In this document: one piece after another, positions 29,384 through 44,887 of the stretch | Layout: every line of letters starts with the position of its first letter | Position numbering within the stretch: position 1 is the stretch's first letter | From: Microbacterium murale | GTDB taxonomy: Bacteria; Actinomycetota; Actinomycetes; Actinomycetales; Microbacteriaceae | Assembly: GCF_014635185.1 (NCBI RefSeq) | Contig: NZ_BMCM01000001.1 | Span: 1,178,001 to 1,242,000, forward strand | Length of the DNA: 64,000 nucleotides | Direction of reading: 5' to 3' | Translations under genes and position numbers: made by a program | Notes under the pieces: model-generated | What the model was told of the DNA's origin: nothing | Seen by the model: only the letters and a program-made list of their open reading frames with translations | The model's database searches: none

Positions 29384-29446
29384 GAACTCATGGTAATAAG
29401 TCGAAGCGCTGCAGAACAGTCGCAACGCCTGAGCTATCGACGGCAG

Positions 29447-29488
29447 TTGACAAACTGCGTCAACATAAATATGTTGAGAGTCAACATA
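29447..29488 (+). promoter_or_regulatory. Promoter and operator B of the 29525 operon
   Basis: A near-consensus -35 TTGACA (29447-29452) is followed by a 17-base spacer and -10 TATGTT (29470-29475). Three half-sites overlap it: TCAACATA (29460-29467), TATGTTGA (29470-29477) and TCAACATA (29481-29488). Each neighbouring pair forms a perfect 8-base inverted repeat. A repressor bound here would cover the -10 and the start of transcription. A related GACTCTCA follows at about 29502-29509. Confidence 0.75.
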
Positions 29489-29524
29489 AATCGAGATGAT
29501 TGACTCTCAGAGACGAGGAGCAGC

Positions 29525-30361: not shown

Positions 30362-30363
30362 CC

Positions 30364-31167
30364 ATGACCTCTGCCAACACCTTCGAATGGAACCAGGTCG
30401 GGGCGGGCCTTGCCGATTCGGTCACGCTGATCGCTGGCGGCGCTCGAGGAACGGGTGCGACTATCGCGGAGAACCTGCTCCAGCTCGGCGGCTCGGTGGC
30501 GGTTTGTGACATCAACCCGAAACATCTCGACGACGCCCGCGACCGATTCGCTAGCCACGGTGACCGCATCTTGATGCTCACCGCGGATTGCACCGTCGCC
30601 AGCGACGTAACTCGTGTCGCGGCCGAGACCTCGGATCAGTTCGGTCGTCTCACAAACATGGTCTACGCGGCAGGGGCATACCGGGCGCAGCGGCCCACCC
30701 TCGAGATCTCCGCCGACGAGTGGGACCTGATCGTTGACTCCAATTTGAAGGGAGCGTTCCTTACTGCTCAGGCTGTCATTCCACACATGATCAACGCTGG
30801 CGGCGGCGCCATCGTCAGCATCTCCTCTCTTGCCGGGCGAACCACCAGTCCTTTTCTCGGAGTTCACTACACCGCCGCGAAAGCCGGCATCCTCGGCCTC
30901 ACCCGCCACATCGCCAAAGAATTTGGTCATCAGAACATCCGCGCGAACTCCATCTGCCCCGGCGGCATCACCGGGCAACGGATGAATGACCTCCTTCACG
31001 ACCTGCACCGCGAATCCGACCTCGTCCAGCTCGCTGATCAAACACCTTTAGGGCGCAACGTCGAGGAGCTCGACGTTGCAGGTGTCGTCCTGTTCCTGTT
31101 GTCAGACCTGTCCAGGTTCGTCACTGGAGCAACGGTCGACGTCAACGGCGGAATCCTCACCATCTAA
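30364..31167 (+). CDS. SDR family oxidoreductase
   Basis: A 267-residue short-chain dehydrogenase. The cofactor loop is LIAGGARGTGATIAENL, and D in VAVCDIN suggests NAD preference. The catalytic serine is in IVSISSLAG and the Tyr/Lys pair in YTAAKAG. It begins three bases after the TIM-barrel gene. It is likely to oxidise a hydroxyl group of the operon's substrate. Confidence 0.92.
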   Translation: MTSANTFEWNQVGAGLADSVTLIAGGARGTGATIAENLLQLGGSVAVCDINPKHLDDARDRFASHGDRILMLTADCTVASDVTRVAAETSDQFGRLTNMVYAAGAYRAQRPTLEISADEWDLIVDSNLKGAFLTAQAVIPHMINAGGGAIVSISSLAGRTTSPFLGVHYTAAKAGILGLTRHIAKEFGHQNIRANSICPGGITGQRMNDLLHDLHRESDLVQLADQTPLGRNVEELDVAGVVLFLLSDLSRFVTGATVDVNGGILTI

Positions 31168-31177
31168 GCCGCCGCCG

Positions 31178-32416
31178 ATGACTACCGTCCTTCTGCTCGC
31201 TGCCCTCGACACTAAGGGTGCCGACGCGGCTTTCATTCAGACTCGCATCCGAGAGCACGGACTCAACGTAACTCTCGTCGACACGGGAGTTCTGGGACAG
31301 CCGTCGTTGACGGCCACGATCTCACGCGATCAGGTCGCCGCTGCGGGTGGCACAACGATTGCCGACCTCGTATCTGCGCAGGACCGCGGTCAGGCCGTCG
31401 CAATTATGGCGAAGGGTGCGGCCATTGAGGTCGAGCGTCTCATCCGTGAAGACGGTGCCGTGGGCGTGTTCGGCATCGGCGGCGGCGCTGGCACGTCGGT
31501 CGCCGCGGCGGCCATGCGCAACCTCCCGCTGGGGATCCCCAAAGTAGTCCTCAGTACTGTCGCGTCCGGGGATACGTCTGCCTACGTCGGCACCTCCGAC
31601 ATCGTCATGTTTCCGTCGATCGTCGATGTCGCCGGCGTCAACCGGATCAGCGCCATCACGTATACCCGGGCCGCCGACGCGTTCGCCGGAATGGTCAACG
31701 GGCAAAAGATTGAGCCCACCTCTGCACCAACCAGGCCGCTGATTGCGGCATCGATGTTCGGAGTCACAACCCCCGCGATCTTGCACGCACAGCAACTCCT
31801 GGAAAACGCCGGGTACGAAGTGGTTGTCTTCCATGCAACCGGCGTCGGTGGGCGCGCGATGGAAAGTCTGATTCGACAAGGGCTTGTCGACGCCGTCCTT
31901 GACCTGACCACAACCGAAGTAACGGATGACATCGTCGGAGGCATTCTCAGTGCGGGGCCGGAACGGTTGACCGCAGCTGCAGAAGCCGGCGTGCCCCAAG
32001 TGGTTTCTGTCGGCGCTACCGACATGGCCAATTTCGGCCCCCTGGACACCGTCCCGCCTCAGCACCGGGAACGCAACCTCTATCAGCACAACAGCGAGAA
32101 CACCCTGATGCGCATCAACCCCGACGAAGCTCGACAGGTGGGCGTGTCAATCGCTGTCCGGCTCAACCATGCCACTGCACCCGCCATCATTTTGCTGCCC
32201 TCCCTGGGCGTGTCGGTCATGGACGCCGCAGGGAAGGGCTTCGACGACCCCGTAGCGCGCCGCGCGCTCGAGGACGCCCTCGCCGAAACGCTCGAGAACC
32301 CTCTCGTGCAGATCAAAAAGCTGAATATACACATCAACGACCACTCATTCGCCGAACTCGCAGTTACCGATCTGATCGGCCTACTTTCCTCATCCACATC
32401 GACGGAGATGCCATGA
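31178..32416 (+). CDS. Tm-1-like ATP-binding domain protein (UPF0261)
   Basis: A 412-residue protein starting MTTVLLLAALDTKGADAAFI, the hallmark of UPF0261/Tm-1-like proteins. GIGGGAGTSVAAAAMRNLPL, VSTVASGDTSAYVGTSDI and VFHATGVGGRAMESL are further family motifs. In plants and fungi this domain is fused to a PEP-hydrolase-like TIM barrel, here a separate gene at 29525. Start codon ATG 31178 follows the SDR stop by about 10 bases; an upstream start at 31076 would overlap the SDR gene. The enzymatic activity is not established. Confidence 0.9.
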   Translation: MTTVLLLAALDTKGADAAFIQTRIREHGLNVTLVDTGVLGQPSLTATISRDQVAAAGGTTIADLVSAQDRGQAVAIMAKGAAIEVERLIREDGAVGVFGIGGGAGTSVAAAAMRNLPLGIPKVVLSTVASGDTSAYVGTSDIVMFPSIVDVAGVNRISAITYTRAADAFAGMVNGQKIEPTSAPTRPLIAASMFGVTTPAILHAQQLLENAGYEVVVFHATGVGGRAMESLIRQGLVDAVLDLTTTEVTDDIVGGILSAGPERLTAAAEAGVPQVVSVGATDMANFGPLDTVPPQHRERNLYQHNSENTLMRINPDEARQVGVSIAVRLNHATAPAIILLPSLGVSVMDAAGKGFDDPVARRALEDALAETLENPLVQIKKLNIHINDHSFAELAVTDLIGLLSSSTSTEMP

Positions 32417-33477
32417 CCCAAATTCACCGACCCTTCCGCCTCGCGCTCGTCGGGCCCGGGCGCATCGCCGAAGCCCACCTTGAAGCAGTGACCGCCGCCT
32501 CCGACGTCGCCCAGCTGATCGCGATCGCCGGAGTCCCCGACGAGATTCAACGCACCACGGAACTGCAGCAGCGCTTCGGTGCACGACGATCAGAGACCAC
32601 AGTCCAAGCGATCATCGAGGCAGACGACGTCGACGCCGTCATTCTCACTGTTCCCAACCATCTCCACGCGCCTCTCGCCATCCCCCTTCTAGAAGCCGGA
32701 AAACACGTACTCATCGAGAAGCCCCTCGCCACTCGCACCGCCGACGCCTTGGCCATCGCGGCGGCCGCGGACGAACACCAGCGCGTGGCGATGGTCGCTC
32801 ACTGCCGGCGCTTCTTCGACGGAGCGCAGGCCGCGCATCGATTCCTTAGCGAGCCGGGGCGCGGGCCAGCAAGCACCGTCCACTACCTCGGCGTTTACGC
32901 CGATCACGCCGCTACGGCCTGGTGGAAGTCAGCTGCTGATACCGGCGGACTCGCGATCGGGCTCAACGGTCCGCACAGCATCGACACGAGCATCTGGCTG
33001 ACTGGCTCGCGGCCTGTGCGCGTATACGCGCGAAATCTACGACTCCGAGACCTCTGGGAAGGCGAAGACGAGGCCACAATCATCGTCGACTTCGAAGACG
33101 GCAGCACCGCGGTCAGCCACCTCTCGCTGAACGCACGTCCAGCCGTCAATCAGCGCTGGATCAACACCGATGCGCATTCGCTCTACCTTGAGGACGATCG
33201 ACGACTCCGCATCAATGGCGAACAGATAGTGGACGAAGCGACAACTCCCTATATCCACGGGGACAACGGCTTCCGTAGCCAGCTCCGTGAGTTCCTCTCC
33301 GCCTTGGCTGAGGGCAGGCAACCGAGTTCCTCCGCCCGATCAACCCTTCCGGTCGTTCAGGTCATGGAAGCCGCTCATCTCTCTAATACCACTGGATTGC
33401 CCGTAGAACTCGACGTCTCAGTCGCCGGGATACCTTCCGACGAAGGTGCGGCTCCCGCCAAACCCGCCGTCGCGTAG
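32413..33477 (+). CDS. Gfo/Idh/MocA family oxidoreductase
   Basis: A 354-residue NAD(P)-dependent oxidoreductase. The Rossmann motif LVGPGRIAEAHLEA opens the protein, and HVLIEKPLATRTADA carries the EKP motif with the catalytic lysine. The C-terminal alpha/beta domain includes GLNGPHSIDTSIWL with a conserved D/H. Members oxidise or reduce sugars, inositols and related compounds. Its ATG overlaps the end of the Tm-1-like gene by four bases. Confidence 0.92.
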   Translation: MTQIHRPFRLALVGPGRIAEAHLEAVTAASDVAQLIAIAGVPDEIQRTTELQQRFGARRSETTVQAIIEADDVDAVILTVPNHLHAPLAIPLLEAGKHVLIEKPLATRTADALAIAAAADEHQRVAMVAHCRRFFDGAQAAHRFLSEPGRGPASTVHYLGVYADHAATAWWKSAADTGGLAIGLNGPHSIDTSIWLTGSRPVRVYARNLRLRDLWEGEDEATIIVDFEDGSTAVSHLSLNARPAVNQRWINTDAHSLYLEDDRRLRINGEQIVDEATTPYIHGDNGFRSQLREFLSALAEGRQPSSSARSTLPVVQVMEAAHLSNTTGLPVELDVSVAGIPSDEGAAPAKPAVA

Positions 33478-33534
33478 CCGCCCCGGCCATCCCTCCCGCA
33501 AAGCCACAACGCAGTCACGATCAAGGACGCTCAC

Positions 33535-34890
33535 ATGACTACCGCAACCGAAGAATCTCCCAAGAAGTCGCTCTACCGAGCGGCGGCCGCCTCTTGGACA
33601 GGCATGGCCCTCGAGTCATACGACTTCTTGCTTTACGGGTCCGCCGCCGCCCTCGTCTTCAACAAGATCTTCTTCCCTGAGTTCGACCCTCTCGTCGGCA
33701 CCATGCTCGCGTTCGTCAGCTACGCACTTGGTTTCTTCATCCGCCCCCTTGGCGGGATCGTCTTCGGTCACTTCGGCGACAAGATCGGCCGGAAGAAGCT
33801 GATGATCATCAGCATCCTTCTTATGGGGATCGGCACCTTTTGCATCGGCCTGCTTCCGACGTACGCCGCTATCGGCATCTGGGCAGCAGTGCTGCTCAGC
33901 CTCCTCCGCATGCTGCAAGGGTTCGCGCTCGGCGGCGAATGGGGCGGCGCGATGCTCATCATCGCCGAACGGGTCCCCGGCCGACGACGAGGATTTTGGA
34001 CCGGCATCCCGGAGGGAGGAATTCCGTTCGGCAATCTCCTCGCCACCGCTGCCCTCGCTATTCTTACTGCAACACTGCCCGAAGAAGCCTTCCTAAGTTG
34101 GGGATGGCGAATCCCATTCCTCGCTTCCGCAGTTCTCGTGCTCGCCGGCCTCTGGATGCGTCTGCGGATCACCGACGCTCCACTTTTCATCGAGGCTCAA
34201 GAGAAGCCCGCCGAGCAGCCGAAAGCGCCCCTCGGCGAGGTTCTCCGTCACTACAAGAGGAACCTGCTCATCGCCGCAAGTGCCCGCCTGACCGAGAACA
34301 TCTCTTACTACGTCATCACCGCGTTCGTCATCGTGTACGTCGTCACTAACGACGCCGACGACCGGGCGCTAGTACTTTTCGCCCTCATCGTCGGGAACGT
34401 CGTTCAGGTCGTCGCCACACCCCTCTTTGGAGCGCTATCGGACCGGATAGGACGAAAGCCGGTCATCCTCTTCGGAGCGATCGGGATGGGCCTCTGGATC
34501 TTCGCTTTCTTCCCCCTGCTCGACACTCAGTCACCAGCGCTAGTCGGCGTCGCAGTCGTCGTGAGCCTGATCCTGCACTCGGCACTCTACGGACCTCAGG
34601 CCGCCTACTTCGCCGAGCAGTTCGACACAAACGTACGTTACACCGGGATGTCAGTCGCTGCACAGGTGACCACCGTCATCGGCGGGGCAATCGCGCCCCT
34701 CGTCGCGACCGCGCTGCTGAGCCACTACATGAGCTCAGTTCCGGTTTCCATCTACGTAGCTGTCGCCGCTGTGCTGACTGTCATTGGAACAGCCTTCGCG
34801 AAGGAAACAAACCGACGCGACCTGGCCGTCAACCAACGGAGGACCTTGAAGGGCGTCCCCGCATCGGCCAGAACTGAAGCCCTAGGCTGA
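33535..34890 (+). CDS. MFS transporter, metabolite:H+ symporter (MHS) family
   Basis: A 451-residue membrane protein with about twelve hydrophobic segments. SWTGMALESYDFLLYGSAAA is the MHS signature at helix 1, and GHFGDKIGRKKLMIISILLM is the loop 2-3 MFS motif, repeated as GALSDRIGRKPVILFGAI in the second half. MHS members take up citrate, alpha-ketoglutarate, shikimate, betaine and related acids with protons. It ends the operon and is probably its uptake system. Confidence 0.92.
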   Translation: MTTATEESPKKSLYRAAAASWTGMALESYDFLLYGSAAALVFNKIFFPEFDPLVGTMLAFVSYALGFFIRPLGGIVFGHFGDKIGRKKLMIISILLMGIGTFCIGLLPTYAAIGIWAAVLLSLLRMLQGFALGGEWGGAMLIIAERVPGRRRGFWTGIPEGGIPFGNLLATAALAILTATLPEEAFLSWGWRIPFLASAVLVLAGLWMRLRITDAPLFIEAQEKPAEQPKAPLGEVLRHYKRNLLIAASARLTENISYYVITAFVIVYVVTNDADDRALVLFALIVGNVVQVVATPLFGALSDRIGRKPVILFGAIGMGLWIFAFFPLLDTQSPALVGVAVVVSLILHSALYGPQAAYFAEQFDTNVRYTGMSVAAQVTTVIGGAIAPLVATALLSHYMSSVPVSIYVAVAAVLTVIGTAFAKETNRRDLAVNQRRTLKGVPASARTEALG

Positions 34891-35054
34891 AGGACTGTAC
34901 GGCGAGGTGACCGCAGGCGTGGTCAATCTACTCGACAGCCGACGTTCTCACGTACCGCCGCCGCGAGCCCGCTCCCCACTCTCGGCATGCGGGTGCTTGC
35001 GCCTCACCACAGCTGGCGCGCCTGGTGGGGTCGTAATCGAAAGGGTGGGCAGTG

Positions 35055-35489
35055 ATGGACGTGGGCAGTCTTGATGCGCACGGACTACGAACGCGCCGCA
35101 AGGTCATGGGAGACGACCATGTAAATGCTTCAGTCAATGATGCCACCCCGTTCACTGAGGACATCCAAGTCCTCGTAACCAAATACGCGTGGGGTGACGT
35201 GTGGAGTCGGCCAGGCCTTTCTCTCCGAGACAGGAGCATCGTGACAGTATCCATGCTCGTCGCCCTCAATCGCCCCCAAGAACTGAGAGGCCACATTCGG
35301 GGTGCGCTGAATAACGGCGTGACAGTCACCGAGCTCCGAGAGATGCTTCTTCAGGCCGCTATCTATTGCGGCGCTCCCGCTGCGCTCGACAGCTTTCGAG
35401 TCGCGGTGAGCGTGTTGGACGAGCTAAACGACGGCAGAGAGACGTTGCAGCCTAGTCCGACCTCCGGGACGGAAGCCGTCGACCAATAA
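35055..35489 (+). CDS. Carboxymuconolactone decarboxylase family protein
   Basis: A 144-residue protein. LSLRDRSIVTVSMLVALNRP and ELREMLLQAAIYCGAPAALD are the CMD signatures. It resembles 4-carboxymuconolactone decarboxylase of the protocatechuate branch, but the family also includes AhpD-like peroxidase partners; only one cysteine is visible, so an AhpD-type CxxC role is unlikely. ATG 35055 follows GTG 35052; AAGGGTGGG precedes both. It stands after the MHS transporter on the same strand. Confidence 0.87.
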   Translation: MDVGSLDAHGLRTRRKVMGDDHVNASVNDATPFTEDIQVLVTKYAWGDVWSRPGLSLRDRSIVTVSMLVALNRPQELRGHIRGALNNGVTVTELREMLLQAAIYCGAPAALDSFRVAVSVLDELNDGRETLQPSPTSGTEAVDQ

Positions 35490-35609
35490 AAAACCGATCA
35501 AACGTCAAAAACGTTGCCACAGCTAGCCGGAATGGCGGTCCCAGTGGAGAGTCGTCGTTTGCCAGCGGCATGAGGACTCTTCTAGTTGCTTGATGGCGCG
35601 TGTATAGCT

Positions 35610-35652
35610 ACTTATAGGCATGTATAGCGAATCGCTATACATGCCTATAAGT
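35610..35652. repeat. Perfect 43-base palindrome
   Basis: Two 21-base arms (35610-35630 and 35632-35652) match perfectly around one central base. The inner part is TGTATAGCGA / TCGCTATACA. A third TGTATAGC lies at 35600-35608 or so. It sits between two convergent genes. It could be a terminator, but there is no T-run; a protein-binding or recombination site is as likely. Confidence 0.7.
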
Positions 35653-35662
35653 TCGTACAACC

Positions 35663-35702
35663 CCCGGGTGTGCACGCGACTGCCTGCATGCAGGCACCCG
35701 GG
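35663..35702. repeat. Nested palindrome
   Basis: CCCGGGTG (35663-35670) pairs with CACCCGGG (35695-35702), and between them TGCCTGCATGCAGGCA (35681-35696) is itself a perfect 16-base palindrome. Together with the 43-base palindrome 11 bases to the left this makes an unusual double hairpin between convergent genes. Confidence 0.6.
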
Positions 35703-35777
35703 GCCAGCTACTTGGCGAAGCGTTGGCGCTGGCGTTGGACACGCCGGCAGGCCGTCGAAGTTTCTCGGTCGATTCGA

Positions 35778-36737
35778 TCAAGCGGTCGCTGAAGACGAAT
35801 CCGGATCTGGCCCGTCGCCACTCGCCTCTCCGGCGTGCACACCGCAGAGCGTTGATACCCACATCTTGATCACGTACTGCCTCGCCGGAGACCCGCACAC
35901 CTCGCAAGTCACCGTGCTTTCCCACTCGGCCGCCCGAATAGCGTCCGTGAACGCCTCGTCGAAGCTCGACGGGTCTGCAGTCGGGTCGGCATAGAAGCTC
36001 AGCGCGCCGAACTTCGACTTCACCTGCTGCACGACATAGTTCGGAGCGATGGCGGACAGCTTTTCATCGAGCCGCCCCACTAGCGGGTACCAGCCGACTC
36101 CGACTTCGAGCAGCTCTGGCCAGCCGGGAGCGATCCGCTTGACGAGGCCTTGCAGTTCTGGTGGAAAGTCGTCCGTCATGTCACTTGTCTCGTTCTGTGG
36201 TCGCATGAAGTTCGCGAGCCCGGCGATGGTCTCGAACTCGGTTCCGCATGCGCGGCGTGCGGCGTCGCGGGCCTGTTGGCGACGCCGCGACCTCTCGCGA
36301 AACTCGCGACCGACCCGCAGGCTGCGCATGACGCCACTATCAAAACTGATCATTCCTCGTCGGCGCCACTCGATTGCTGCGTGGCCACGAAAGCCCGCAA
36401 TCGCGCGGCGCCGCTCCATGAAATCTAGGTTCCGTGGCAGAGGGCCAGGGAGCCCGTCGGAGTCCGGTAGGAGGTAGGTGAAGAGTTCGGCGAACGTGGG
36501 ACCCGATGCTGTGCGCCGGCGAGTTTGGGCGATGAAGATCGCTGCGGCCAGCGCCCACTGCTCCGCCGTGTCGTCACCGGTGAAGTCCTCGAACATGTAC
36601 ACCCATTCGGCTGGCGGCGGCGAGTCGATGTCCTGCCACCAGATCGGGTACGACTCAGGCATCTCATCCATCACAATCGCGGTCGCTTGCACGGGCCTTC
36701 CCGTGACGCGACCGCCTGTCATCGGGATGGGCAGCAC
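35778..36737 (-). CDS. Unknown protein beside XRE regulator
   Basis: Up to 319 residues. The N-terminal part is Trp/Arg-rich and ends in a basic stretch (REFRERSRRRQQARDAARRA). The C-terminal part has GWYPLVGRLDEKLSAIAPNY followed by VKSKFGALSFY and CEVCGSPARQ, a conserved pattern I have seen in unnamed bacterial proteins, with a CxxC that could bind zinc. The start is uncertain: ATG 36737, 36722 or 36671. It is divergent from the XRE regulator across a region with GTATGGC repeats and probably regulated by it. No function is assigned. Confidence 0.6.
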   Translation of the reverse strand: MLPIPMTGGRVTGRPVQATAIVMDEMPESYPIWWQDIDSPPPAEWVYMFEDFTGDDTAEQWALAAAIFIAQTRRRTASGPTFAELFTYLLPDSDGLPGPLPRNLDFMERRRAIAGFRGHAAIEWRRRGMISFDSGVMRSLRVGREFRERSRRRQQARDAARRACGTEFETIAGLANFMRPQNETSDMTDDFPPELQGLVKRIAPGWPELLEVGVGWYPLVGRLDEKLSAIAPNYVVQQVKSKFGALSFYADPTADPSSFDEAFTDAIRAAEWESTVTCEVCGSPARQYVIKMWVSTLCGVHAGEASGDGPDPDSSSATA

Positions 36738-36782
36738 ACGTGCAGAGGGAGCGGAGCGATCCGACGAGGACGAGATTGTTTC

Positions 36783-36822
36783 GTATGGCCTTCCGAATTA
36801 TGCCATACCGATTAGGCCATAC
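36783..36822. promoter_or_regulatory. Operator cluster between XRE regulator and unknown gene
   Basis: GTATGGCC (36783-36790), GCCATAC (36802-36808) and GGCCATAC (36815-36822) form two overlapping inverted repeats. On the plus strand TTGTTT (36777-36782) and TATGCC (36800-36805) are spaced 17 bases apart and could be the promoter of the regulator. Confidence 0.55.
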
Positions 36823-36851
36823 GCGGAATAGCTGGTCGAGACGCTTGATAG

Positions 36852-37136
36852 GTGCCCCGACGGAACGAAGAGATTGAAGCTGAGTGGAGCGCGTACTCCC
36901 AGCGCTTCGCGACCTCGCTTCGTTCTGCGCGCGAGCGCGCTGGCCTGAGCCAGGAAGACGTCGCATATCGGTCCGGCCTCACGCGCTACACCTATCAGAA
37001 GTACGAGAAGGGGGAGTCGCGCCCGGGAAACCCCGCGAATCCCACGCTCCGCACGCTCCTCGCGCTCTCGCAGGTGCTCGGAGCCTCGCTGGTGGATCTA
37101 GTCCCAGAGGGCGCCCCTGACCTTCGGAGCCGTTGA
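36852..37136 (+). CDS. XRE-family HTH regulator
   Basis: A 94-residue protein. The helix-turn-helix is LRSARERAGLSQEDVAYRSG followed by TYQKYEKGESRPG, the phage-Cro/C1-like fold. There is no extra sensor domain. It lies just inside the Tn7-like module next to tniQ and is divergent from an unknown gene. Such repressors commonly control mobile-element genes and their own promoter. Confidence 0.85.
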   Translation: MPRRNEEIEAEWSAYSQRFATSLRSARERAGLSQEDVAYRSGLTRYTYQKYEKGESRPGNPANPTLRTLLALSQVLGASLVDLVPEGAPDLRSR

Positions 37137-37225
37137 GGCGCGATTAGTGACCTGAAGGAACGGAGAGGCGCGCTCGTGTCGCGCGCCCCGAGCACCCACA
37201 CTCGTTCGCGTTGATGCCTTCGAGT

Positions 37226-39349
37226 TCACGCCAGGTCCACGCAAGCAGGGGATGGACACGATGGGCAGCTGCGACCTGAAGAGCGGCTTGCCACCGTCGC
37301 CTTCCAGAGGTGCCCTTTCGGGCATCGCCGAGCCGCCATGAGGGTCGACGTCGGCCTCAGCGTGCCCGGTGCGCGACTATTGCTGAGATCCCATTCGGCA
37401 GCGAGCTCAGGCCGCAACGTCGACAGGTCATTCGCGCCTGGAACCACTTGATGTCCATTGCAGAGCGGGCATCCGTTGCCACGCCGGCTTGTTCGGCTAT
37501 AGACCCTCGCCGCCCAGACGTGCCCCTCCACGCACTTCCACATGGCGCGGTGCTTCGAGTGTGCAGTCACCTCGTGAGGGCTGAGCACATTTGATGCGTC
37601 CCACTCCGGCACGAGGTCGGGTCGCAGCGTGGCGAGATCCGTCTTGCCGCGCACGACAAGTCTGCCCGCGCAGTAGGGACACCCCCTGCCGCTCGAACGG
37701 CTGTAAATTGCTGCTTCCCAGACGTGGCCTTTTTCACATTGCCAGGCCACCTTCTTGCGAGCATTGGGGCGTACCTGCTCGGGGCGCAGCTCGTTGCTGA
37801 TGTGCCACTGAGCGGCGAGGTCAGGGCGGAGTGTGCCGAGGTCCGTCGCCCCGGGTAGGACGAGCTTGCCAGCGCAGTATGGGCAACCATTGCCGCGGGT
37901 GCGATTTGCGATCGACGCCTGCCACCCGTGGCCGCACCGACCCGCCCACCAGGCCCTCCTCGTGGTACGGGCGCTGACGACGTGAGGCGTGAGCTTGCCG
38001 TTGCGACGGTAGTCCCACTCGGCCGCAAGGTCGGGACGCAGGGTTGCGAGATCGGTCTCTCCCGGGATGGCACGTTTCTTAGCGCAATAGGGGCAGCCGG
38101 AGCCGTTCCGCGCCCGGTTGTTGATCGTGGCCACCCAGCGGTGTCCTCTACTGCAGACCCACTTGACGCGGCGGTGGGAACCTGAGCTGACATGATCAGG
38201 TCCGCCCGCGTTAGCCCCAGGTGACTTGTCCCACTCCGCTGCAAGGTCGGGAAATTGAGTACCGAGGTCTGACTGCCCCCGCCAAACTATGAACCCGGCA
38301 CAGTGCGGGCAACCTGCTATCGCGCGCACGTATGGAGTTGTTTCCCAGGAATGGCCTTCATCGCATACCCACCATGCCGCCGCTGATGTCCGCCGTGGTT
38401 CCCATGGGTCGCGGGCCTCGTCGTTGCGACCCCAGTCCCATTCCCCCACAGCACGCGGGCGCCGCTGAATCCACAGTGGGTACGCCGCCGTCGAATCGAT
38501 GATCGCTGACGTGTCTACGATGTCCAGCGGCAGGTTCAAAGGGTCGATGCGAGTTGGACGGTCCGCGCGGCGGTGCGGGCGCAGCCACAGCACGATTCGC
38601 TCAACGAGCACCCGGATCGCTCCTACCATCGGCGGCAAGGCCTCGAGGATGACCGGACGTAGTTCTTCAGCAGGAAGCGCAGACCATCGAGCAACATTTT
38701 CGGCATTCGAAAGCGCGGCAAGTACTGCGATAGTCTCTGGGTACAACTCGGCTCGACCACGAACCTCGTGGTCTTCGCGGCACGCAGCCAACGCTGGCTT
38801 CCATCCGTCGGGCTGGGTCAACCACGCGTTGTCGCGCACCATCTCCCACACCCGCGCGTGCAACCGCGCGTCGACCCGGTCACTGGCGACCAGGCGTCTG
38901 AAAAGGCGCTCGGCGTTCGCCAGTTCGCGGTCGAATGGGACTATCCGCTGCGACTCCGGCGTCGTTCCGGGCCCCGTCCAGACAAGCTGGCCCGGGTGCC
39001 GCAGACACCAGTTCTCGCGATCGTGCGGTATCTGCTGCACACGATCGCCGGCGGCGCACAGTCGGCAGAGGAACCGGTCAGAGTACACCTGGTGAGACTT
39101 CGGTTGAGCGAGGCGCTTGAGGCGCAAGTAATGGCCTTCGGGACGGCCGGCAGCAGCCTCGATTGTGCTCGCCGCACCAGCTTCATTAACCCACACGCGG
39201 TAGATGTATGGCCGGGCTTCGGTCGTGAGTCCTCGCTCGACGTAGTCGAAGGGAACACCCGCAGCCTCGCATTGACGTTGGGCATACGATCGCGGCGACT
39301 CGAAGCGGTGCCATTTAGGTCGGATGGGCCATGCCCGGGCGTCGGTCAC
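37226..39349 (-). CDS. tniQ: TniQ-type targeting protein with six zinc-ribbon modules
   Basis: A 707-residue protein. The N-terminal part resembles TniQ/TnsD: a conserved F-E-S-P-x-S-Y start, and a zinc finger with C95, C98, C115 and H118 (FLCRLC then WCLRHPGQLVW). The C-terminal half, about 326-700, holds six modules of one plan: W-x-C-x2-GH-x-W, about 15 residues, CPxC, then DLxTLRPDLAAEWD. These match the DUF4379-type treble-clef zinc ribbon. The third module has its first cysteine shifted (RCGHGW). The overlap with tnsC by four bases makes it part of the transposition operon. TniQ proteins choose the target; the ribbon array may bind DNA. The TniQ call rests on context and the finger. Confidence 0.78.
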   Translation of the reverse strand: MTDARAWPIRPKWHRFESPRSYAQRQCEAAGVPFDYVERGLTTEARPYIYRVWVNEAGAASTIEAAAGRPEGHYLRLKRLAQPKSHQVYSDRFLCRLCAAGDRVQQIPHDRENWCLRHPGQLVWTGPGTTPESQRIVPFDRELANAERLFRRLVASDRVDARLHARVWEMVRDNAWLTQPDGWKPALAACREDHEVRGRAELYPETIAVLAALSNAENVARWSALPAEELRPVILEALPPMVGAIRVLVERIVLWLRPHRRADRPTRIDPLNLPLDIVDTSAIIDSTAAYPLWIQRRPRAVGEWDWGRNDEARDPWEPRRTSAAAWWVCDEGHSWETTPYVRAIAGCPHCAGFIVWRGQSDLGTQFPDLAAEWDKSPGANAGGPDHVSSGSHRRVKWVCSRGHRWVATINNRARNGSGCPYCAKKRAIPGETDLATLRPDLAAEWDYRRNGKLTPHVVSARTTRRAWWAGRCGHGWQASIANRTRGNGCPYCAGKLVLPGATDLGTLRPDLAAQWHISNELRPEQVRPNARKKVAWQCEKGHVWEAAIYSRSSGRGCPYCAGRLVVRGKTDLATLRPDLVPEWDASNVLSPHEVTAHSKHRAMWKCVEGHVWAARVYSRTSRRGNGCPLCNGHQVVPGANDLSTLRPELAAEWDLSNSRAPGTLRPTSTLMAARRCPKGHLWKATVASRSSGRSCPSCPSPACVDLA

Positions 39350-40395
39350 GCGGCTTCCACGAGGTCGCTGAGTTGCACTCTGTGTCGGACTCGCGTGGTC
39401 TGCCGCAAACCGTCGAGGACCGCGAATAGCCGCTCGCGGGTCACCCGTTCATCCGTGCGCTCGGATTCATCGAGAATCGATGCGACAAGTCGCTCGATGA
39501 TCATCGCGAGCACCGAAAGGCGTCCGTCGGCGGCGGCATGAAGAGCGGCAAAGTTCTTGGTGAGCATGCCCCGGCCGTGCTCGCACAGTGGAAGGTTGCG
39601 GTCGAAGATGGCGACCCAGCGACGCCACAGGGCGAGCCCTTCATCGCTTTGGATGTCGACCCTTCGCAGTTCGACCAAGTCGCATCTCATCGTGACCTGA
39701 AGGCCGTCGCCCGAACCGAACGCCTTGCCTCTGGTGAGATTGATCCCCACCAGCACGACTGTGGCCGAGGACTCGTTCTGTAGCGCCTTGATGACGCTCG
39801 ACGGTTCGCTTCCACCGAGATTGTGGGCTTCGTCGATCACAAGGAGCTTCGTGCGATGGACGTGCAGCAGCTCCACCGCTCGCCGCCGGAGGTTGTCCGT
39901 CGTGATCTGAGTCGGCAGGGTGATCGTCGGGGCGAGAAACCTGATTATCTGACTGAGCAGCGCCTTGCCCGTAGCGTGGTCGGTGACCTCCACCCATACG
40001 ACAGGGACTTCACCGTCAGCGGAGTAGTTCGGGAACTTCCTGGAGTGGTCGTTCTCAACTGAGCGCGCAAGAAGCAACGCGAGTTCAGTCTTGCCGTAGA
40101 ACATGGGCGCTGAAACCATAAGCCCCCGGCGCGAGTTCTTTCGGCGCGGGTTCGCGACGATGTGCTTGGCGAGGATTCTCGTACTCAGATCTTGCTCGGG
40201 TGTCGGTACTCGCAGTGTCAGCCGCAAATAATCGTCGCGGGCCTCGTCGTAGAGGCTGCGTTCGGATGCGCTCAGCGCGGCGTAGTCGGAGAATGAGATT
40301 GATGTTGGCATCGGGGGCAGCGCCGCAAGCGCTTCGCGGAGGCCGGCGAGTGTGGTCTTTCGGTCATGATGCAGGACGAGTGGCTCGATGATCAC
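39346..40395 (-). CDS. tnsC: TnsC/TniB-type AAA ATPase
   Basis: A 349-residue ATPase. The Walker A region is SAPMFYGKTELALLLARS, ending GKT but with alanine at the first glycine position. Walker B is KLLVIDEAHNLGG (D188, E189), and sensor I follows at VVLVGINLTRG. In Tn7-like systems TnsC bridges the target selector (TniQ) and the transposase. It overlaps tnsB and tniQ by four bases on each side. Confidence 0.9.
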   Translation of the reverse strand: MIIEPLVLHHDRKTTLAGLREALAALPPMPTSISFSDYAALSASERSLYDEARDDYLRLTLRVPTPEQDLSTRILAKHIVANPRRKNSRRGLMVSAPMFYGKTELALLLARSVENDHSRKFPNYSADGEVPVVWVEVTDHATGKALLSQIIRFLAPTITLPTQITTDNLRRRAVELLHVHRTKLLVIDEAHNLGGSEPSSVIKALQNESSATVVLVGINLTRGKAFGSGDGLQVTMRCDLVELRRVDIQSDEGLALWRRWVAIFDRNLPLCEHGRGMLTKNFAALHAAADGRLSVLAMIIERLVASILDESERTDERVTRERLFAVLDGLRQTTRVRHRVQLSDLVEAA

Positions 40396-42434
40396 GGGTG
40401 CAGCTCTTTCGACGTGACAATGTCGTACGACGACGAGTTCCAGTCGATGTCATCGACATCTACGGGATTGCTCCATTCGCGTAGTCCAATCGCGACAGGT
40501 TCGGTGAGCGGTGCGTCGGTGTCCGGCTCGCCGGTGGCTTTCGCGGACGCCTCTCGGAGGTAGCGCTTGCGTGCCTGCTTGTCGCCGCGCGCACGTCGTT
40601 CGATCTCATCGAGGAACTCCGACGTCTTCGGTACCTCTCCGGGTTCTCCGGAGCCAAAGCGCTCGATCAGTTTCACCTGTGTCTCCGCGACCATCCACGC
40701 GGCTCGCTCATCGATGAGCTTGTCCCAGCACTCGATCCACTCCCTGGATTCAGGATGCTGGACCCATACCGCATTCGAGTTGTAGGGATCAAAGTGAATG
40801 TCGAACTGGCGTGCCTGTCGTGATCCAGCGGGCGCGCCCGTCAGCGAACGATTGCGGAGGTCCGCCAAGAGAGGAGAGTCGTATACGCGGTTCTTGAACG
40901 TGATTCCTTCGTCACTGATGACACGAGGTTCACTGGGGAGTAAGCCGAAGAAGTCCTCCGCACGAAAGGGTAGCTGCACGCCCGGACCGACTTCGAACAG
41001 CGCGGAGTACATCTGATTCGGTGTCCACTTTCGCCCAGGGAACAGTGGAGATCTCAGCCCCCGGTGCTGCGAGTTCAGGAACACTGTGGTGATCCAGGCA
41101 TCGAAAGCGAGACGCACGGAGTCCAGCGTCAGAATCGGCACAGCGCTTTTCCCGCGATTGTGCACCGCGTTACCAGTGGAGCCGGCCAGCCATGTCGCGA
41201 AGTCCGAGGAGGTTGTGCCGAAGTTGCGTTCGACATGTGGCTTGACTGTCGGCGTGTTGGGCGGTGCGAGTACGAGATTGATCCCAAACGCGCGACAGGC
41301 GGCCTCGAAGGTTGCGGATCGAAAGTCTGCGCCACCATCGACGGTGATTGAGTGCGGGAAGATCCATGGCACGGCGAGTGATTCATCGTCGAGGTACGGA
41401 TTGATCCTCTTCATGAGTTCGACTGGAAGCGTTGCTGAGCCCGAGAGTGTTGCGGCGGCAGAACCGGGGACAGCCCGGCGACCGACGATCGCCCGGGCCA
41501 GCAGCAGCGCATGGTCGTAGCCGTTTGGCGAGTCGGCGTGGACTGCCCAGGCCATCGGAACCCGGCTGCTCACGCAAAAGAGCGCCGTCACCGTCGGACG
41601 GAAGTCGTTGCCCTTGTCGTCCCACACCTGTACGTCAAGCGTCGTGGAGTCGATCTCACAGACTGCGCCGAGCCGGTGTGCGTTGCCGGAGAAGTGCTCG
41701 CGGTCGGGGCGGTTCGACGCCGTGCGACGGGTGGTCGCCTTCGCGAAGCTGTATCGGCCCGCGTCGCGCTCGTTGATGAACCCTTGAAGGGTGGTGTCTT
41801 TGATCGCGCAGATCGCGTCGCCCGGATACATAGCTTCCAAGGTGCGACGGACGAGGGCGGCGCAGTGACGTCGGCTGCTCGTCGACATGTTCACCCGGCT
41901 ATCGAGTTCTCGGTCGATGACGGCGACCAGGCGAGGATCGGCCTTCGCGACCACCAGACGCTTCTTGCCCTTCGGATGCAGTCGCGCATCCACCGCAGCA
42001 ACGCCCTCTGATCGATAAGCCTTCCAGAAGTTGAAGAGAGCCTTCCGCGATCGGCCGAGAGATGTGCCGGCCAGCTCCTCGACCTTCGACGCGATCCGCT
42101 GTTCCTGCGTGGTTCGGACCAGGTCATACTGCGGACGCGGGGCCGTCGCAGTCGGATCCATCGGGATGCCTCGGAATACCTCCTGCAGGTGCTTTTCCAT
42201 GTCGAGTACGTCGGCTGGCCAATTGCCTGAGACTGCCCGAAGAGGCGTGCTCGAGTTGCGCCGGGCGGTGCCTGCGTGCGCGAGCAATTCCGGCATCGAC
42301 ACACTCATCCAATCGTCAGCGCTGCCGTCGCGACGGAGCCTCGCCTCGGTGCCGCGGCGGACGCCTTCCCAGACCCAGAGTTCCCCCTCGATAGTGACGG
42401 AGTCGCCGAGCTGGAGCTTGTATTCGTCAGGCAT
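40392..42434 (-). CDS. tnsB: TnsB/TniA-type DDE transposase
   Basis: A 680-residue retroviral-integrase-type transposase. Catalytic residues read as D262 (CEIDSTTLDVQVWDD), D366 (ITVDGGADFRS) and E402 (TVKPHVERNFGTT), with 35 residues between the last two as expected. The N-terminal 250 residues would hold the end-binding helix-turn-helix domains. A Mu-type C-terminal beta-barrel follows. TnsB binds the ends and joins the 3' strands to target DNA. It overlaps tnsC by four bases and starts just after tnsA. Confidence 0.94.
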   Translation of the reverse strand: MPDEYKLQLGDSVTIEGELWVWEGVRRGTEARLRRDGSADDWMSVSMPELLAHAGTARRNSSTPLRAVSGNWPADVLDMEKHLQEVFRGIPMDPTATAPRPQYDLVRTTQEQRIASKVEELAGTSLGRSRKALFNFWKAYRSEGVAAVDARLHPKGKKRLVVAKADPRLVAVIDRELDSRVNMSTSSRRHCAALVRRTLEAMYPGDAICAIKDTTLQGFINERDAGRYSFAKATTRRTASNRPDREHFSGNAHRLGAVCEIDSTTLDVQVWDDKGNDFRPTVTALFCVSSRVPMAWAVHADSPNGYDHALLLARAIVGRRAVPGSAAATLSGSATLPVELMKRINPYLDDESLAVPWIFPHSITVDGGADFRSATFEAACRAFGINLVLAPPNTPTVKPHVERNFGTTSSDFATWLAGSTGNAVHNRGKSAVPILTLDSVRLAFDAWITTVFLNSQHRGLRSPLFPGRKWTPNQMYSALFEVGPGVQLPFRAEDFFGLLPSEPRVISDEGITFKNRVYDSPLLADLRNRSLTGAPAGSRQARQFDIHFDPYNSNAVWVQHPESREWIECWDKLIDERAAWMVAETQVKLIERFGSGEPGEVPKTSEFLDEIERRARGDKQARKRYLREASAKATGEPDTDAPLTEPVAIGLREWSNPVDVDDIDWNSSSYDIVTSKELHP

Positions 42435-43250
42435 TTACGCTGCCCTTCCCTCAAGCGCTGAATCAGAGGTGGTGTAGACGGTCTCACTGCTGAAGACAAC
42501 AGCTAGATCGACGTCGAGCAAGCGACGCCAGGCCATGTTGTCAATCCATGCGCAGGCCAGCGGCGGGCACTCGGGGGAGACGATTCTGCAGAGCTCACCG
42601 CGTGGTCGACCGCCCCGTGCTGTTTCCAGGATGAGTGCTTCCATGGTGGGCGTGGGCAGGCAGCGGTCGTGGCGAGATGCCGAAAGGCAGTCGAGATTGG
42701 CTGTCGCCAGATGGCCGTAACCCGTGAGAACTCGGTAGCGCCAGCCGAGCGCTTCACAGATCTTTTCGGTCTCTTTGAACTGGACGCGGGCCTCATCGTC
42801 CACCCGCTCGGCAGGGCGCACATCGAAGAGCCCCAAGCTGCCGTCCGTGAACTGAGCCAAGAAATCAGGAACGTGCGAGAAACCTGGTAATTGGGAACCG
42901 TGCCCGAAGGCGATCGCCAAAGGCTGCGCCCACAGCCGGTCCACTTGCCCGCCGTAGTCCAGCCATAGAACTTCCCAACGCTCCTGCTGGGACTCGCACC
43001 ACACATGAGATCGAGTGCGCTGCCAGAAGTACATCGCTGGCGTGAACCGATGACGGACGCCTTTCGACTTCCGTATTCTCAGTGGATCGATGGCAGCCCA
43101 GTCCCCCTCGCCGAGGTCTCGACCGACCGCTGCCCATTCGTGTTGTCCGGCCGCAGCGCCCCGAGGGTTCGTGCGAGGGATCCAATGCAATTCCGATGAC
43201 GACGTGCGGCGTCGAGGGGTGATGTCCTTGGCTCCGTCTACCGGCCGCAT
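42435..43250 (-). CDS. tnsA: TnsA-like transposase endonuclease subunit
   Basis: A 271-residue protein. The nuclease fold runs from HVWCESQQERWEVLWLDYGG through QVDRLWAQPLAIAF, PGFSHVPDFLAQF and LGLFDVRPAE. The active-site pattern is E86/E90, D129 and D143-x-R145; the usual lysine is an arginine. TnsA cuts the 5' strands so that the element moves by cut-and-paste. The gene lies immediately before tnsB and nearest to the right end. I used ATG 43250; other starts are possible. Confidence 0.85.
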   Translation of the reverse strand: MRPVDGAKDITPRRRTSSSELHWIPRTNPRGAAAGQHEWAAVGRDLGEGDWAAIDPLRIRKSKGVRHRFTPAMYFWQRTRSHVWCESQQERWEVLWLDYGGQVDRLWAQPLAIAFGHGSQLPGFSHVPDFLAQFTDGSLGLFDVRPAERVDDEARVQFKETEKICEALGWRYRVLTGYGHLATANLDCLSASRHDRCLPTPTMEALILETARGGRPRGELCRIVSPECPPLACAWIDNMAWRRLLDVDLAVVFSSETVYTTSDSALEGRAA

Positions 43251-43394
43251 CGAGACCCTTTCGCAAATGAATCCATGTTCGGACGGTGCGAAGACAAGGG
43301 GGCAGTCGGAGCCCCTTCGCTCCTGTATCCACTGCTGATGCTCCTCCGCCTCGGCCCGTCACGCAGGAAGGTCCTCGGCGTTTCGTGACACACG

Positions 43395-43460
43395 GTGTCA
43401 CCGTAGCCGGGTCGTGTGTCATTTAAAGCGCGCTTGTGTCAGCTCAACGCGATTCCGACA
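43395..43460. repeat. Putative right end of the Tn7-like element
   Basis: Read inward from 43460 the sequence starts TGTCGGAATCGCGTTGAGC, then TGACAC at 43441, 43421 and 43400, so repeats begin 19, 20 and 21 bases apart. Regular TnsB-binding repeats of about this period mark Tn7-like ends. An extra inverted TGACAC lies at 43386-43391. The outermost base is uncertain by a few bases. Confidence 0.6.
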
Positions 43461-43469
43461 AAAAAACTC

Positions 43470-43513
43470 TTGACACGGCATCCGCTTCGTCGTAACGTAC
43501 AACCAAATGGTTG
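43470..43513 (+). promoter_or_regulatory. Leaderless arsR promoter with operator over the start codon
   Basis: TTGACA (43470-43475), a 17-base spacer and TAACGT (43493-43498) put the transcription start at about 43505, two bases before the ATG. The palindrome CAACCAAATGGTTG (43500-43513) contains the start codon itself. GTTGCACAAC follows. Autorepression by the ArsR protein is likely. Confidence 0.65.
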
Positions 43514-43899
43514 CACAACTAGAATTGAGCGAAGCGGAGACCGACCGTGTGTTCCACGCACTGGCGACGGCGACCCGACGCGATATCCTGCGCCGCACGA
43601 TCAATGAAGAGCAGTCGGTGTCGACCCTTGCGGTCGATTACGACATGTCCTTCGCCGCGGTGCAGAAGCACGTTGCCGTCCTCGAGGCCGCGGGCCTCAT
43701 CATCAAACGCGCCGAGGGACGCGAGCGGCTCGTCCGCGCGAATCCTGAGATGATCGCGCGCGCCCGGGCGCTGCTCGCCCGATATGAAGAGCTGTGGCGG
43801 GCCCGCATCTCCCGCCTCGACGATCTCCTGTCATCCGAATCTCCCCACCGAGATTCACCGAACAACCCACCGCAGAATTCACCGAAGAGAGGGAAATGA
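43507..43899 (+). CDS. ArsR-family winged-helix regulator
   Basis: A 130-residue regulator. RVFHALATATRRDILRRTIN then STLAVDYDMSFAAVQKHVAV is the ArsR winged helix; no metal-binding cysteines are visible. The C-terminal 25 residues are a Pro/Ser/Asn tail. It ends one base before the AHSA1-domain gene. ArsR/AHSA1 pairs are common in Actinobacteria and the regulator controls the pair. The gene has a leaderless promoter with an operator over its start. Confidence 0.92.
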   Translation: MVAQLELSEAETDRVFHALATATRRDILRRTINEEQSVSTLAVDYDMSFAAVQKHVAVLEAAGLIIKRAEGRERLVRANPEMIARARALLARYEELWRARISRLDDLLSSESPHRDSPNNPPQNSPKRGK

Positions 43900-43900: not shown

Positions 43901-44887
43901 ATGCCTGTCACTGACATCAGCACTGATGCTGAGAACCTCACGATGACCGTCGCCGCCGACTTCGCCGCTCCGATCGAGCGGCTCTGGCACGCGTTCACCG
44001 ATCCGGCCCAGCTCGAGCGGTTCTGGGGTCCTCCGGGGTGGCCGGCCACCTTCACCGAGTTCGACTTCACGGTGGGCGGCAAGGCGCTCTATTACATGAC
44101 CAGTCCCCAGGGCGAGAAGTCTGGCGGTTCGTGGGAGTTCCTCAACATCCTCGAACCGCACGGCTTCGATGTCATCGACGCCTTCGCGGACGCCGACGGG
44201 AATCCGATCGAAGGCATGCCGGCGATGCGGATGACGTTCGGCTTCGAGTCGACGGACACCGGCAGCCGCATGATCAACACCAGCCATTTCGACTCGGCCG
44301 AGGCTCTCGAGCAGGTCGTCGCGATGGGCGCCGTCGAAGGAACCCGCATGGCGATGGCGCAGCTGGATGCCGTGCTACAGGACCTCCGCGAATACGCACA
44401 GGGCAAGGGCACGCGCGTCGAACTGCTCGACGACACGCACGTGCGGATCACGCGTCTGGTGAACGGTCCGCGCGAGCTGGTCTGGCGTGCGCACCACGAC
44501 GCCGAACTCGTGAAGAAGTGGATGCTGGGACCGGACGGCTGGGAGATGACGGAGTCCGTCGTCGGCACAGAGGTCGGCCAGTCGTACCGTAACTCCTGGG
44601 CTCCGGTCGGAGACACCGAGGGGGAGCCGTTCGGCTTCGAGGGCGAGGTGCTGCTCATCGACGCTCCGCGCCGTGCCGTCACCACCGAGCGGATGCAGGG
44701 AATGCCCACTCAGACGCTCAACGACCTCAACCTCTATGAAGAGGACGGCGCCACCCTTGTCACGGTGCTCATCGAGTACCCCGACAAGGAGACGCGCGAC
44801 ATGATCCTCGCCACCGGCATGGCCGACGGCATGGAGGAGTCGTTCGCACGGCTGGAGCGCGAGGTGCTTGAGCCCACGCGTTCATAA
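43901..44887 (+). CDS. SRPBCC/AHSA1 tandem-domain protein
   Basis: A 328-residue protein with two AHSA1-type hydrophobic-pocket domains. The first (about 12-155) has TVAADFAAPIERLWHAFTDP and FWGPPGWPATFTEFD. The second (about 165-325) has ITRLVNGPRELVWRAHHDAE and KWMLGPDGWEMT. GAGAGGG precedes the ATG. Such proteins bind lipids or small hydrophobic ligands and often appear with ArsR regulators; a specific role is not known. Confidence 0.9.
   Translation: MPVTDISTDAENLTMTVAADFAAPIERLWHAFTDPAQLERFWGPPGWPATFTEFDFTVGGKALYYMTSPQGEKSGGSWEFLNILEPHGFDVIDAFADADGNPIEGMPAMRMTFGFESTDTGSRMINTSHFDSAEALEQVVAMGAVEGTRMAMAQLDAVLQDLREYAQGKGTRVELLDDTHVRITRLVNGPRELVWRAHHDAELVKKWMLGPDGWEMTESVVGTEVGQSYRNSWAPVGDTEGEPFGFEGEVLLIDAPRRAVTTERMQGMPTQTLNDLNLYEEDGATLVTVLIEYPDKETRDMILATGMADGMEESFARLEREVLEPTRS

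What the first reader, a model, noticed from the sequence alone, without database searches (positions are those of the whole stretch)
37226..39349. TniQ-type protein with six tandem zinc ribbons
The sequence shows an N-terminal TniQ-like finger (C95-x2-C98, C115-x2-H118) and six copies of a W-x-C-x2-GH-x-W ... CPxC module in the second half. Known TniQ and TnsD proteins are usually without such an array. Because TniQ-type proteins select the target, the ribbon array could read a specific DNA or nucleoprotein. This would be a Tn7-like targeting mode I do not know as described.
Basis: partly seen in the sequence, partly recalled or inferred. Interest (0 to 1): 0.82.

Follow-up and report, generated by a model that had tools for sequence, protein, structure and literature searches.

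The report
Zinc-ribbon target selector of a transposon
This bacterial jumping gene carries a target-choosing protein built from a familiar transposon core plus a row of six small zinc-binding modules, and close relatives whose ends could be found all sit at one spot, just in front of the same regulatory gene.

Summary
Observation confirmed. The minus-strand ORF 39349-37226 (707 aa) has a C95-x2-C98/C115-x2-H118 finger and six DUF4379 zinc ribbons (E 1e-81), as last gene of a tnsA-tnsB-tnsC-tniQ operon. Pfam TniQ does not ring directly, but profile-profile comparison with plain TniQs of the genus gives E 4e-19, so the core is TniQ/TnsD-related. The element is delimited: C1:1173609-1221460, 47,852 bp, TGTCGG ends, AAAAA repeats; window 1-43460 lies inside it. 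Its right tip lies 46 bp before the ATG of a near-universal arsR gene. Of 21 selectors with at least 55% N-terminal identity, 14 have a resolved right end, all at this gene, 13 of 14 at 45-46 bp; 0 of 22 divergent loci hold the site motif. A complete 15,588-bp relative with AGGGT duplications has only two ribbons, so ribbons 3-7 appear dispensable for choosing this site. Best reading: a TnsD-type site-specific selector, probably of the uncharacterised actinobacterial Tn7-like clade, with ribbons as target-contacting extension (DNA contact inferred, not shown). New variant of a known kind.

The parts
37226..39349 (-). tniQ/tnsD-type target selector, 707 aa, GTG start
38996..39067 (-). N-terminal CCCH finger, C95-x2-C98 ... 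C115-x2-H118, same arrangement as Tn7 TnsD C124/C127/C152/H155
38300..38464 (-). ribbon 1 (residues 296-350)
38084..38269 (-). ribbon 2 (residues 361-422)
37874..38053 (-). ribbon 3 (residues 433-492), C-GH variant
37670..37843 (-). ribbon 4 (residues 503-560)
37460..37639 (-). ribbon 5 (residues 571-630)
37256..37429 (-). ribbon 6 (residues 641-698)
39346..40395 (-). tnsC (TniB/AAA ATPase), 349 aa
   Evidence: PF05621 49.6 bits, cut-off 22.4
40392..42434 (-). tnsB (DDE-type transposase), 680 aa
   Evidence: PF09299 29 bits, cut-off 21.7
42435..43250 (-). tnsA endonuclease, 271 aa
   Evidence: NF033179 114.9 bits, cut-off 110; PF08722 24.7 bits, below its cut-off of 26.5
43386..43460 (-). right end: tip TGTCGG at 43460 and four TGACA/TGTCA words (43386, 43396, 43417, 43437), candidate TnsB sites
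43461..43465 (.). 5-bp target duplication AAAAA (the other copy lies left of the left end, outside the window)
1..43460 (.). part of the 47,852-bp element inside the window; left end at genome position C1:1173609, 4,392 bp before window position 1
43493..43518 (+). conserved target block TAACGTACAACCAAATGGTTGCACAA (putative -10 region, near-palindrome and start codon of arsR), +30 to +55 from the middle of the duplication
   Evidence: coordinates read
43507..43899 (+). arsR-family regulator (name recalled from the sequence), the attachment gene, outside the element
43901..44887 (+). double SRPBCC-like protein after arsR (name recalled); homology between element-bearing loci ends near its end in most pairs, a few pairs share more flank

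Best explanation
The gene encodes the TnsD-type target selector of a Tn7-like transposon. Its TniQ core (residues 1 to about 280, CCCH finger) couples to TnsC, and its C-terminal extension, here six DUF4379 zinc ribbons in place of the helix-turn-helix extension of Tn7 TnsD, helps to hold the target. The target is the promoter/start region of a chromosomal arsR gene; the transposon inserts with its right end facing the gene, 45-46 bp before the ATG and just outside the putative -35 box, with a 5-bp duplication. Shown by sequence: the operon, ends, duplication, fixed spacing, repeated independent use of the site, and TniQ homology. Inferred: that this protein (not another) picks the site, that it couples to TnsC, that its core and first two ribbons contact the conserved block, and that the further ribbons only add affinity or another function.
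For: Operon and families. Core is TniQ-related with the Tn7 TnsD finger arrangement. Element limits and 5-bp repeat in the window genome and in G602 (AGGGT, 15,588 bp). Right tips of 13 elements in 13 genomes face the same arsR, 12 of 13 at the printed distance 44-45 (true spacing 45-46, see report), one at 59; a 14th (G482) printed 45. arsR pair in 139 of 149 genus genomes. In 45 of these arsR loci an ACA tip lies at the printed 44/45 in 16, against 9 hits over the other 26 positions 38-65. Identical or nearly identical elements in front of 72%-identical arsR flanks: 11,900 bp at 100% (G514/G442) and 5,486 bp at 98.9% (G602/G417). Site motif in 12 of 12 close-clade loci given plus the window, 0 of 22 divergent loci. 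The conserved block (+30 to +55) falls in the +23 to +58 footprint of Tn7 TnsD. Ribbons keep their positional identity: same-index 0.59-0.75, different-index 0.44, seven six-ribbon proteins.
Against: No DNA-binding or transposition data. Solved DUF4379 relatives are mitoribosomal proteins, so the ribbon could bind RNA or protein. The N-terminal models were too poor to confirm the TniQ fold. Ribbon number changes from 2 to 7 at one site, so most ribbons are not needed for its choice. The AAAAA duplication is low-complexity. In G442 the 5-bp neighbours of the two ends seen (ACGAC, GGAAG) differ, and the outer left end of the unit shared with G514 was not found. Of the 16 tips, 4 have no six-letter repeat three times nearby, one (L126) has a repeat that looks unrelated, and 4 belong to elements already counted here (L101, L120, L122, L124). 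Five of 21 close-clade elements have no resolved right end, and two more (G513, G426) have arsR only about 37 and 27 kb beyond tnsA.
Confidence: 0.73

Rival explanations
1. The TniQ core alone reads arsR; the ribbons do something else, for example non-specific DNA clamping, binding TnsC or TnsB, or RNA binding.
For: 2 to 7 ribbons at the same site; conservation falls from ribbon 1 (0.81) to ribbons 5 and 6 (0.70) while the core is 0.79 (eight proteins); solved ribbon relatives sit in ribosomes; array pI 9.7.
Against: Among the ORFs with a core score better than E 1e-36, the only two without at least two ribbons are L087 (cut by a contig end) and L094 (a 242-aa ORF); ribbons 1 and 2 are as conserved as the core.
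Confidence: 0.2
2. The elements sit at arsR because one ancestral insertion was inherited, not because the site is chosen again and again.
For: The resolved cases all come from genomes of one genus, or of contigs assigned to it here, and arsR is near-universal in it.
Against: 100% and 98.9% identical elements beside 72% identical flanks; three different end types at the same spacing; 29 of 45 arsR loci viewed have no tip at that spacing.
Confidence: 0.04
3. A separate selector (guide RNA, TnsE- or TnsF-like protein) picks arsR and this protein is only an adaptor.
For: Short TniQs do act as adaptors in other systems (PMC10293859, section 11 read).
Against: The compact G602 element holds tnsA, tnsB, tnsC, one ribbon TniQ and, among ORFs of at least 200 aa, otherwise only a 3,168-aa ORF and ORFs overlapping it or the tns genes. 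Cas genes were not searched for by profile.
Confidence: 0.07

Closest known systems
Tn7 TnsD (Escherichia coli)
   Same: CCCH finger in the N-terminal region, CxxC...CxxH; insertion at a fixed distance from one conserved gene; recognition region +23 to +58 (PMC2918618, passages seen)
   Different: Extension is tandem DUF4379 ribbons, no match to the Pfam TnsD or TniQ model at E <= 1; target is the 5' end of arsR, not the 3' end of glmS
Actinobacteria-dominated clade 2 of Tn7-like transposons (Benler et al. 2021, PMC8649781)
   Same: Tn7-like transposons of Actinobacteria with repeat arrays at the ends; the paper says none of clade 2 has been experimentally characterised (passages and section 6 seen)
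   Different: The words zinc and ArsR occur 0 times in its main text; I placed no tree against that clade, so membership is likely but not tested
TnsF of Tn6022 (Faure et al. 2023, PMC10293859)
   Same: Tn7-like target selector containing several zinc fingers
   Different: TnsF is a separate protein with tyrosine-recombinase-like domains that acts with a short TniQ (one TnsF-TniQ fusion is mentioned there); here DUF4379 ribbons are fused to the TniQ core
DUF4379 proteins (PF14311), e.g. trypanosomatid mS66 and mt-SAF33
   Same: Same ribbon module by sequence and structure
   Different: Mitoribosomal proteins; no TniQ core known to me
Tn7706 of Rhodococcus (PMC12915292, passages seen)
   Same: Actinobacterial Tn7-like element with tnsA, tnsB, tniQ, tniB
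   Different: The term zinc-ribbon occurs 0 times in its main text; I did not analyse its TniQ. Around the ribbon matches on two Rhodococcus plasmids that I opened no tns gene is annotated (that annotation is incomplete)

Membership tests
Tn7-like transposon | tnsA, tnsB and tnsC genes together | tested here: met
   the same set in the relatives' loci except L025, L085, L087 and L094
Tn7-like transposon | TGT ends with arrays of repeats as candidate transposase sites | tested here: met
Tn7-like transposon | 5-bp target duplication | tested here: met
   AAAAA in the window genome, AGGGT in G602; not found for G442
Tn7-like transposon | Cut-and-paste transposition by TnsABC plus a selector | not testable with these tools
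   needs an assay
TniQ/TnsD superfamily (homology) | Core homologous to TniQ proteins | tested here: met
   hhalign prob 99.1, E 4.1e-19, 226 columns; 9 of 11 compared proteins give a PF06527 match at E <= 1, best 3.1e-8, the first member only 0.021 and below cut-off. Most of the 11 had been found with the ribbon-TniQ profile; their Pfam match is independent of it
TniQ/TnsD superfamily (homology) | CCCH finger CxxC...CxxH | tested here: met
Pfam PF06527 TniQ as a model | Score above the curated cut-off | tested here: not met
   No match at E <= 1 in 12 of 12 members; I therefore call it TniQ/TnsD-related, not a PF06527 member
Tn7 TnsD proper | TnsD C-terminal (Pfam PF15978) region | tested here: not met
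   No Pfam TnsD match at E <= 1; that half is ribbons
TniQ fold | Hel1 - finger - connector - Hel2 structure | tested here: inconclusive
   Model weak at residues 39-137; second model pLDDT 57 and no PDB match at E <= 0.001
DUF4379 (PF14311) | Ribbon module above cut-off | tested here: met
CRISPR-associated transposon | Cas genes and a guide array in the element | not tested
   No Cas profile or array search was made

The most novel reading that the evidence does not exclude
The ribbon array is a modular recogniser that reads the arsR operator region, possibly with ArsR bound to it, module by module; a natural series of 2- to 7-ribbon selectors at one site would then be a ready-made set for learning and re-programming zinc-ribbon DNA recognition by a Tn7-like transposon.
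Probability: 0.13. Interest if true: 0.82.

Novelty: new variant of a known kind. Interest (0 to 1): 0.56.

Why it matters
It supplies, for what is probably a large and experimentally untouched actinobacterial clade of Tn7-like transposons, a delimited element, its ends, its duplication and a defined attachment site at single-base resolution, so the target selector can be tested directly. It also suggests that the target-holding half of a TnsD-type protein can be a tandem zinc-ribbon array of variable length, with a natural two-ribbon version as minimal form.

Tried and rejected
Direct TniQ match of the N-terminus by Pfam and NCBIfam, and a PDB profile search: none. Two structure models: ribbons good, N-terminus poor; the second gave no PDB match at E <= 0.001, and no TniQ chain appears in the rows shown. 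Searches for the left end inside the window failed because it lies outside. Left flank of the element (3,000 bp) against 29 arsR loci (L102-L130): no match, perhaps because an older end stands beside it; an empty site matching the left flank was therefore not shown. tRNA attachment: no tRNA gene in the window, one in 3 of the 29 other loci scanned (L072, L073, L098). Attachment sites of the divergent ribbon selectors were not resolved. G333 (one of the 11 genomes) was dropped: no Tns genes and no profile match in its locus L025. Viral contigs: no relative. Around the ribbon matches on 3 plasmids opened (two Rhodococcus, one Piscirickettsia) no tns gene is annotated; 4 other actinobacterial ribbon arrays have no TnsA/B/C or core hit in the stretches fetched (7-17 kb). 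Reading the arsR pair as cargo was rejected because it is in 139 of 149 genus genomes.

Counting note: scripts measured to the base before the ATG, so their 44, 45 and 59 are true spacings of 45, 46 and 60; labels that same base as position 61. The 45 arsR loci are the 30 best-scoring and 15 more taken down its list, not a random sample. The 21-member clade was drawn only from ORFs with at least two ribbons.

Full report
WHAT IS THERE. The minus-strand ORF 39349-37226 encodes 707 aa. Pfam finds six DUF4379 ribbons (E 9.8e-82) and lists no family for the first 290 residues at E <= 1. The gene closes an operon: tnsA 43250-42435 (NF033179, over cut-off), tnsB 42434-40392 (Mu-transpos_C, over cut-off), tnsC 40395-39346 (TniB, over cut-off). 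At E <= 0.001 it is the only ORF of this genome with DUF4379 matches.

IS THE CORE TniQ? Pfam's own TniQ model does not ring for any of 12 ribbon selectors at E <= 1. A profile of 11 N-termini (A2) finds, besides ribbon selectors, plain TniQ-type proteins of the same genus, among them one of the second Tn7-like element of this very genome (C6, E 1.4e-10). Of eleven such plain proteins (A6), 9 give a PF06527 match at E <= 1, best 3.1e-8; the first member has only 0.021, below the cut-off. A2 against A6 gives hhalign probability 99.1, E 4.1e-19 over 226 columns. The finger C95-x2-C98/C115-x2-H118 is invariant in the window protein and 11 relatives and matches the CCCH motif of Tn7 TnsD, whose mutation abolishes attTn7 binding and transposition (PMC2918618, passages). 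I call the protein TniQ/TnsD-related. Structure prediction did not settle the fold: residues 39-137 have pLDDT under 50, and a second, N-terminal model has mean pLDDT 57 and no PDB match at E <= 0.001.

HOW COMMON. In a family sample 11 of 398 genomes match residues 1-314; one of them, G333, has no Tns genes in its locus and I dropped it. With the profile, 54 of 296 genomes of the genus match, plain TniQs included. Among the loci fetched, 46 TniQ-type ORFs carry 2-7 ribbons and 13 carry none, of which two (L087, L094) are cut or short. A named scan gives 12 loci, 7 of 12 titled Microbacterium; since the G258 contig length equals that of Microbacterium sp. K24, I take the genus of the window to be Microbacterium. 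In a class sample 8 of 394 genomes match at E <= 1e-6. In a phylum sample of 246 genomes, 20 PF06527 matches show no ribbons within about 1.5 kb (0 of 20). DUF4379 rings in 5 of 246 genomes of a phylum sample; in the four other than the window genome no TnsA/B/C or core hit lies in the fetched stretch. So the fusion looks like one recruitment within this family, but sampling is partial.

THE ELEMENT. The right tip is TGTCGG at window 43460, with TGACA/TGTCA words at 43386, 43396, 43417 and 43437. A matching left end lies at C1:1173609, 4,392 bp before the window. Both are bordered by AAAAA; the right side has six A's, so this repeat alone is weak. The element is 47,852 bp. A second complete element, G602:C133:11205-26792 (15,588 bp), has the non-trivial duplication AGGGT on both sides.

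THE SITE. Right of the tip stands an arsR-family gene with an SRPBCC-like neighbour (names recalled from the sequences, not from a profile search). DNA of the pair matches in 139 of 149 genus genomes, so it is chromosomal. Thirteen elements, the window's included, have their tip in front of it. Printed distances are 44 (4 of 13), 45 (8 of 13) and 59 (1 of 13). The scripts measured to the base before the ATG, so the true spacings are 45, 46 and 60; in the window the tip is 43460 and the ATG 43507, hence 46 bases between. A fourteenth element, G482, is split over two contigs; its tnsA/tnsB half faces arsR at printed 45. In 45 arsR loci (30 best-scoring and 15 more) an ACA tip stands at printed 44/45 in 16, and 9 times in all over the other 26 positions tested. 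Twelve of the 16 have a six-letter word at least three times in the 110 bp before the tip; one of these (L126) looks unrelated, and L101, L120, L122 and L124 are elements already counted here. Three types of end repeat occur there: TGACAC, TTGCAC and AGTCCGA.

CHOSEN AGAIN AND AGAIN. In G442 and in the window genome older ends stand directly left of the left end, so elements pile up at this site (the latter read by eye). In G442 the 5-bp neighbours of the ends seen do not match each other, so the outer left end of that mobile unit is unknown.

SELECTOR AND SITE GO TOGETHER. Among ORFs with at least two ribbons, N-terminal identity to the window's splits into 21 at 55% or more and 24 at 38% or less (local alignments; L096 was not matched). 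Of the 21, 14 have a resolved right end, all at arsR; two (G513, G426) have arsR about 37 and 27 kb beyond tnsA with an AGTCCGA-type end there and no other cluster of the six repeat words that I scanned in between; five are unresolved. The exact site motif occurs in 12 of 12 close-clade loci given (of 20 besides the window) and in 0 of 22 divergent loci of about 18-20 kb. The targets of the divergent ones were not found.

WHAT THE RIBBONS MAY DO. The conserved target block lies at +30 to +55 from the middle of the duplication, inside the +23 to +58 region bound by Tn7 TnsD. The G602 element carries one TniQ, 432 aa with two ribbons; neither the ribbon profile on its ORFs of at least 110 aa nor a six-frame pattern finds another. 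The nearly identical 5.5 kb in G417, with the same 432-aa ORF, shows that this form moved recently. So two ribbons appear enough, unless a longer selector acted in trans. Among eight full-length selectors ribbons 1 and 2 (mean identity 0.81, 0.78) are as conserved as the core (0.79), ribbons 4-6 less (0.70-0.71). Ribbons keep their place in the array (seven six-ribbon proteins: same index 0.59-0.75, other index 0.44). The array is basic (pI 9.7). Solved relatives are trypanosomatid mitoribosomal proteins, so RNA or protein binding stays possible. I infer that core plus ribbons 1-2 hold the arsR block and that the others add affinity or another role.

LITERATURE. Full-text searches: TniQ with zinc ribbon and Tn7-like (none); Tn7-like with TniQ and target (67 papers, 40 listed); DUF4379 (three, not on transposon targeting by title); TnsD with zinc finger, attachment site and Tn7-like (seven); treble clef/zinc ribbon/homing (one); TniQ with Actinobacteria and Tn7 (eight); Tn7-like with Microbacterium (two, not on this by title); Tn7-like with ArsR and insertion site (one Salmonella paper, listing only); TniQ with treble clef (none); TnsD/TniQ/zinc ribbon (35 papers holding two terms, 20 listed, none of these 20 with zinc ribbon). 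In the listings and the passages read I saw no description of this array or site. PMC10293859: outline, sections 8 and 11 and passages; supplements could not be read, so a mention there is possible. PMC8649781: passages and section 6. PMC2918618 and PMC12915292: passages.

VERDICT. A real and well-delimited feature. It works, most likely, like Tn7 TnsD; it differs in the ribbon extension and in the site. New variant of a known kind.

Noticed in passing
G000:C6:210000-229000 (L026): A second Tn7-like element in the same genome with tnsABC, two plain TniQ-type ORFs and two ORFs (167 and 168 aa) homologous to the window ORF 36737-35778.
   Followed up: partly
window 35778-37137; L015 1-430: ORF of 319 aa without Pfam match and an XRE-like helix-turn-helix frame next to tniQ; the start of the G258 contig looks almost the same DNA although its TniQ is only 55% identical, which suggests a mosaic (read by eye).
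   Followed up: partly
G000:C1 just left of 1173609; G442:C5:206931: Right ends of older elements directly beside the left ends: tandem occupation of the same attachment site.
   Followed up: partly
L102, L114, L115, L116, L118, L121, L164, L167: arsR loci with transposon-end-like repeats at the fixed spacing in genomes where I found no, or did not look for, an adjacent ribbon TniQ: solo ends, remnants or other elements.
   Followed up: partly
window 35600-35660: Long palindrome around TATAGGCATGTATAGCG/CGCTATACATGCCTATA (read by eye).
   Followed up: no
window 29525-34890: Cargo that reads like a metabolic gene cluster with a transporter lies inside the element, and another such cluster lies just outside at 45-50 kb (judged from ORF translations, families recalled).
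   Followed up: no
L145, L146: Close relatives sit in records titled Planococcus sp. and a Planctomycetota MAG; probably mislabelled or contaminating contigs.
   Followed up: no
G602:C133:11205-26792: The compact relative carries one 3,168-aa ORF as almost its only cargo.
   Followed up: no
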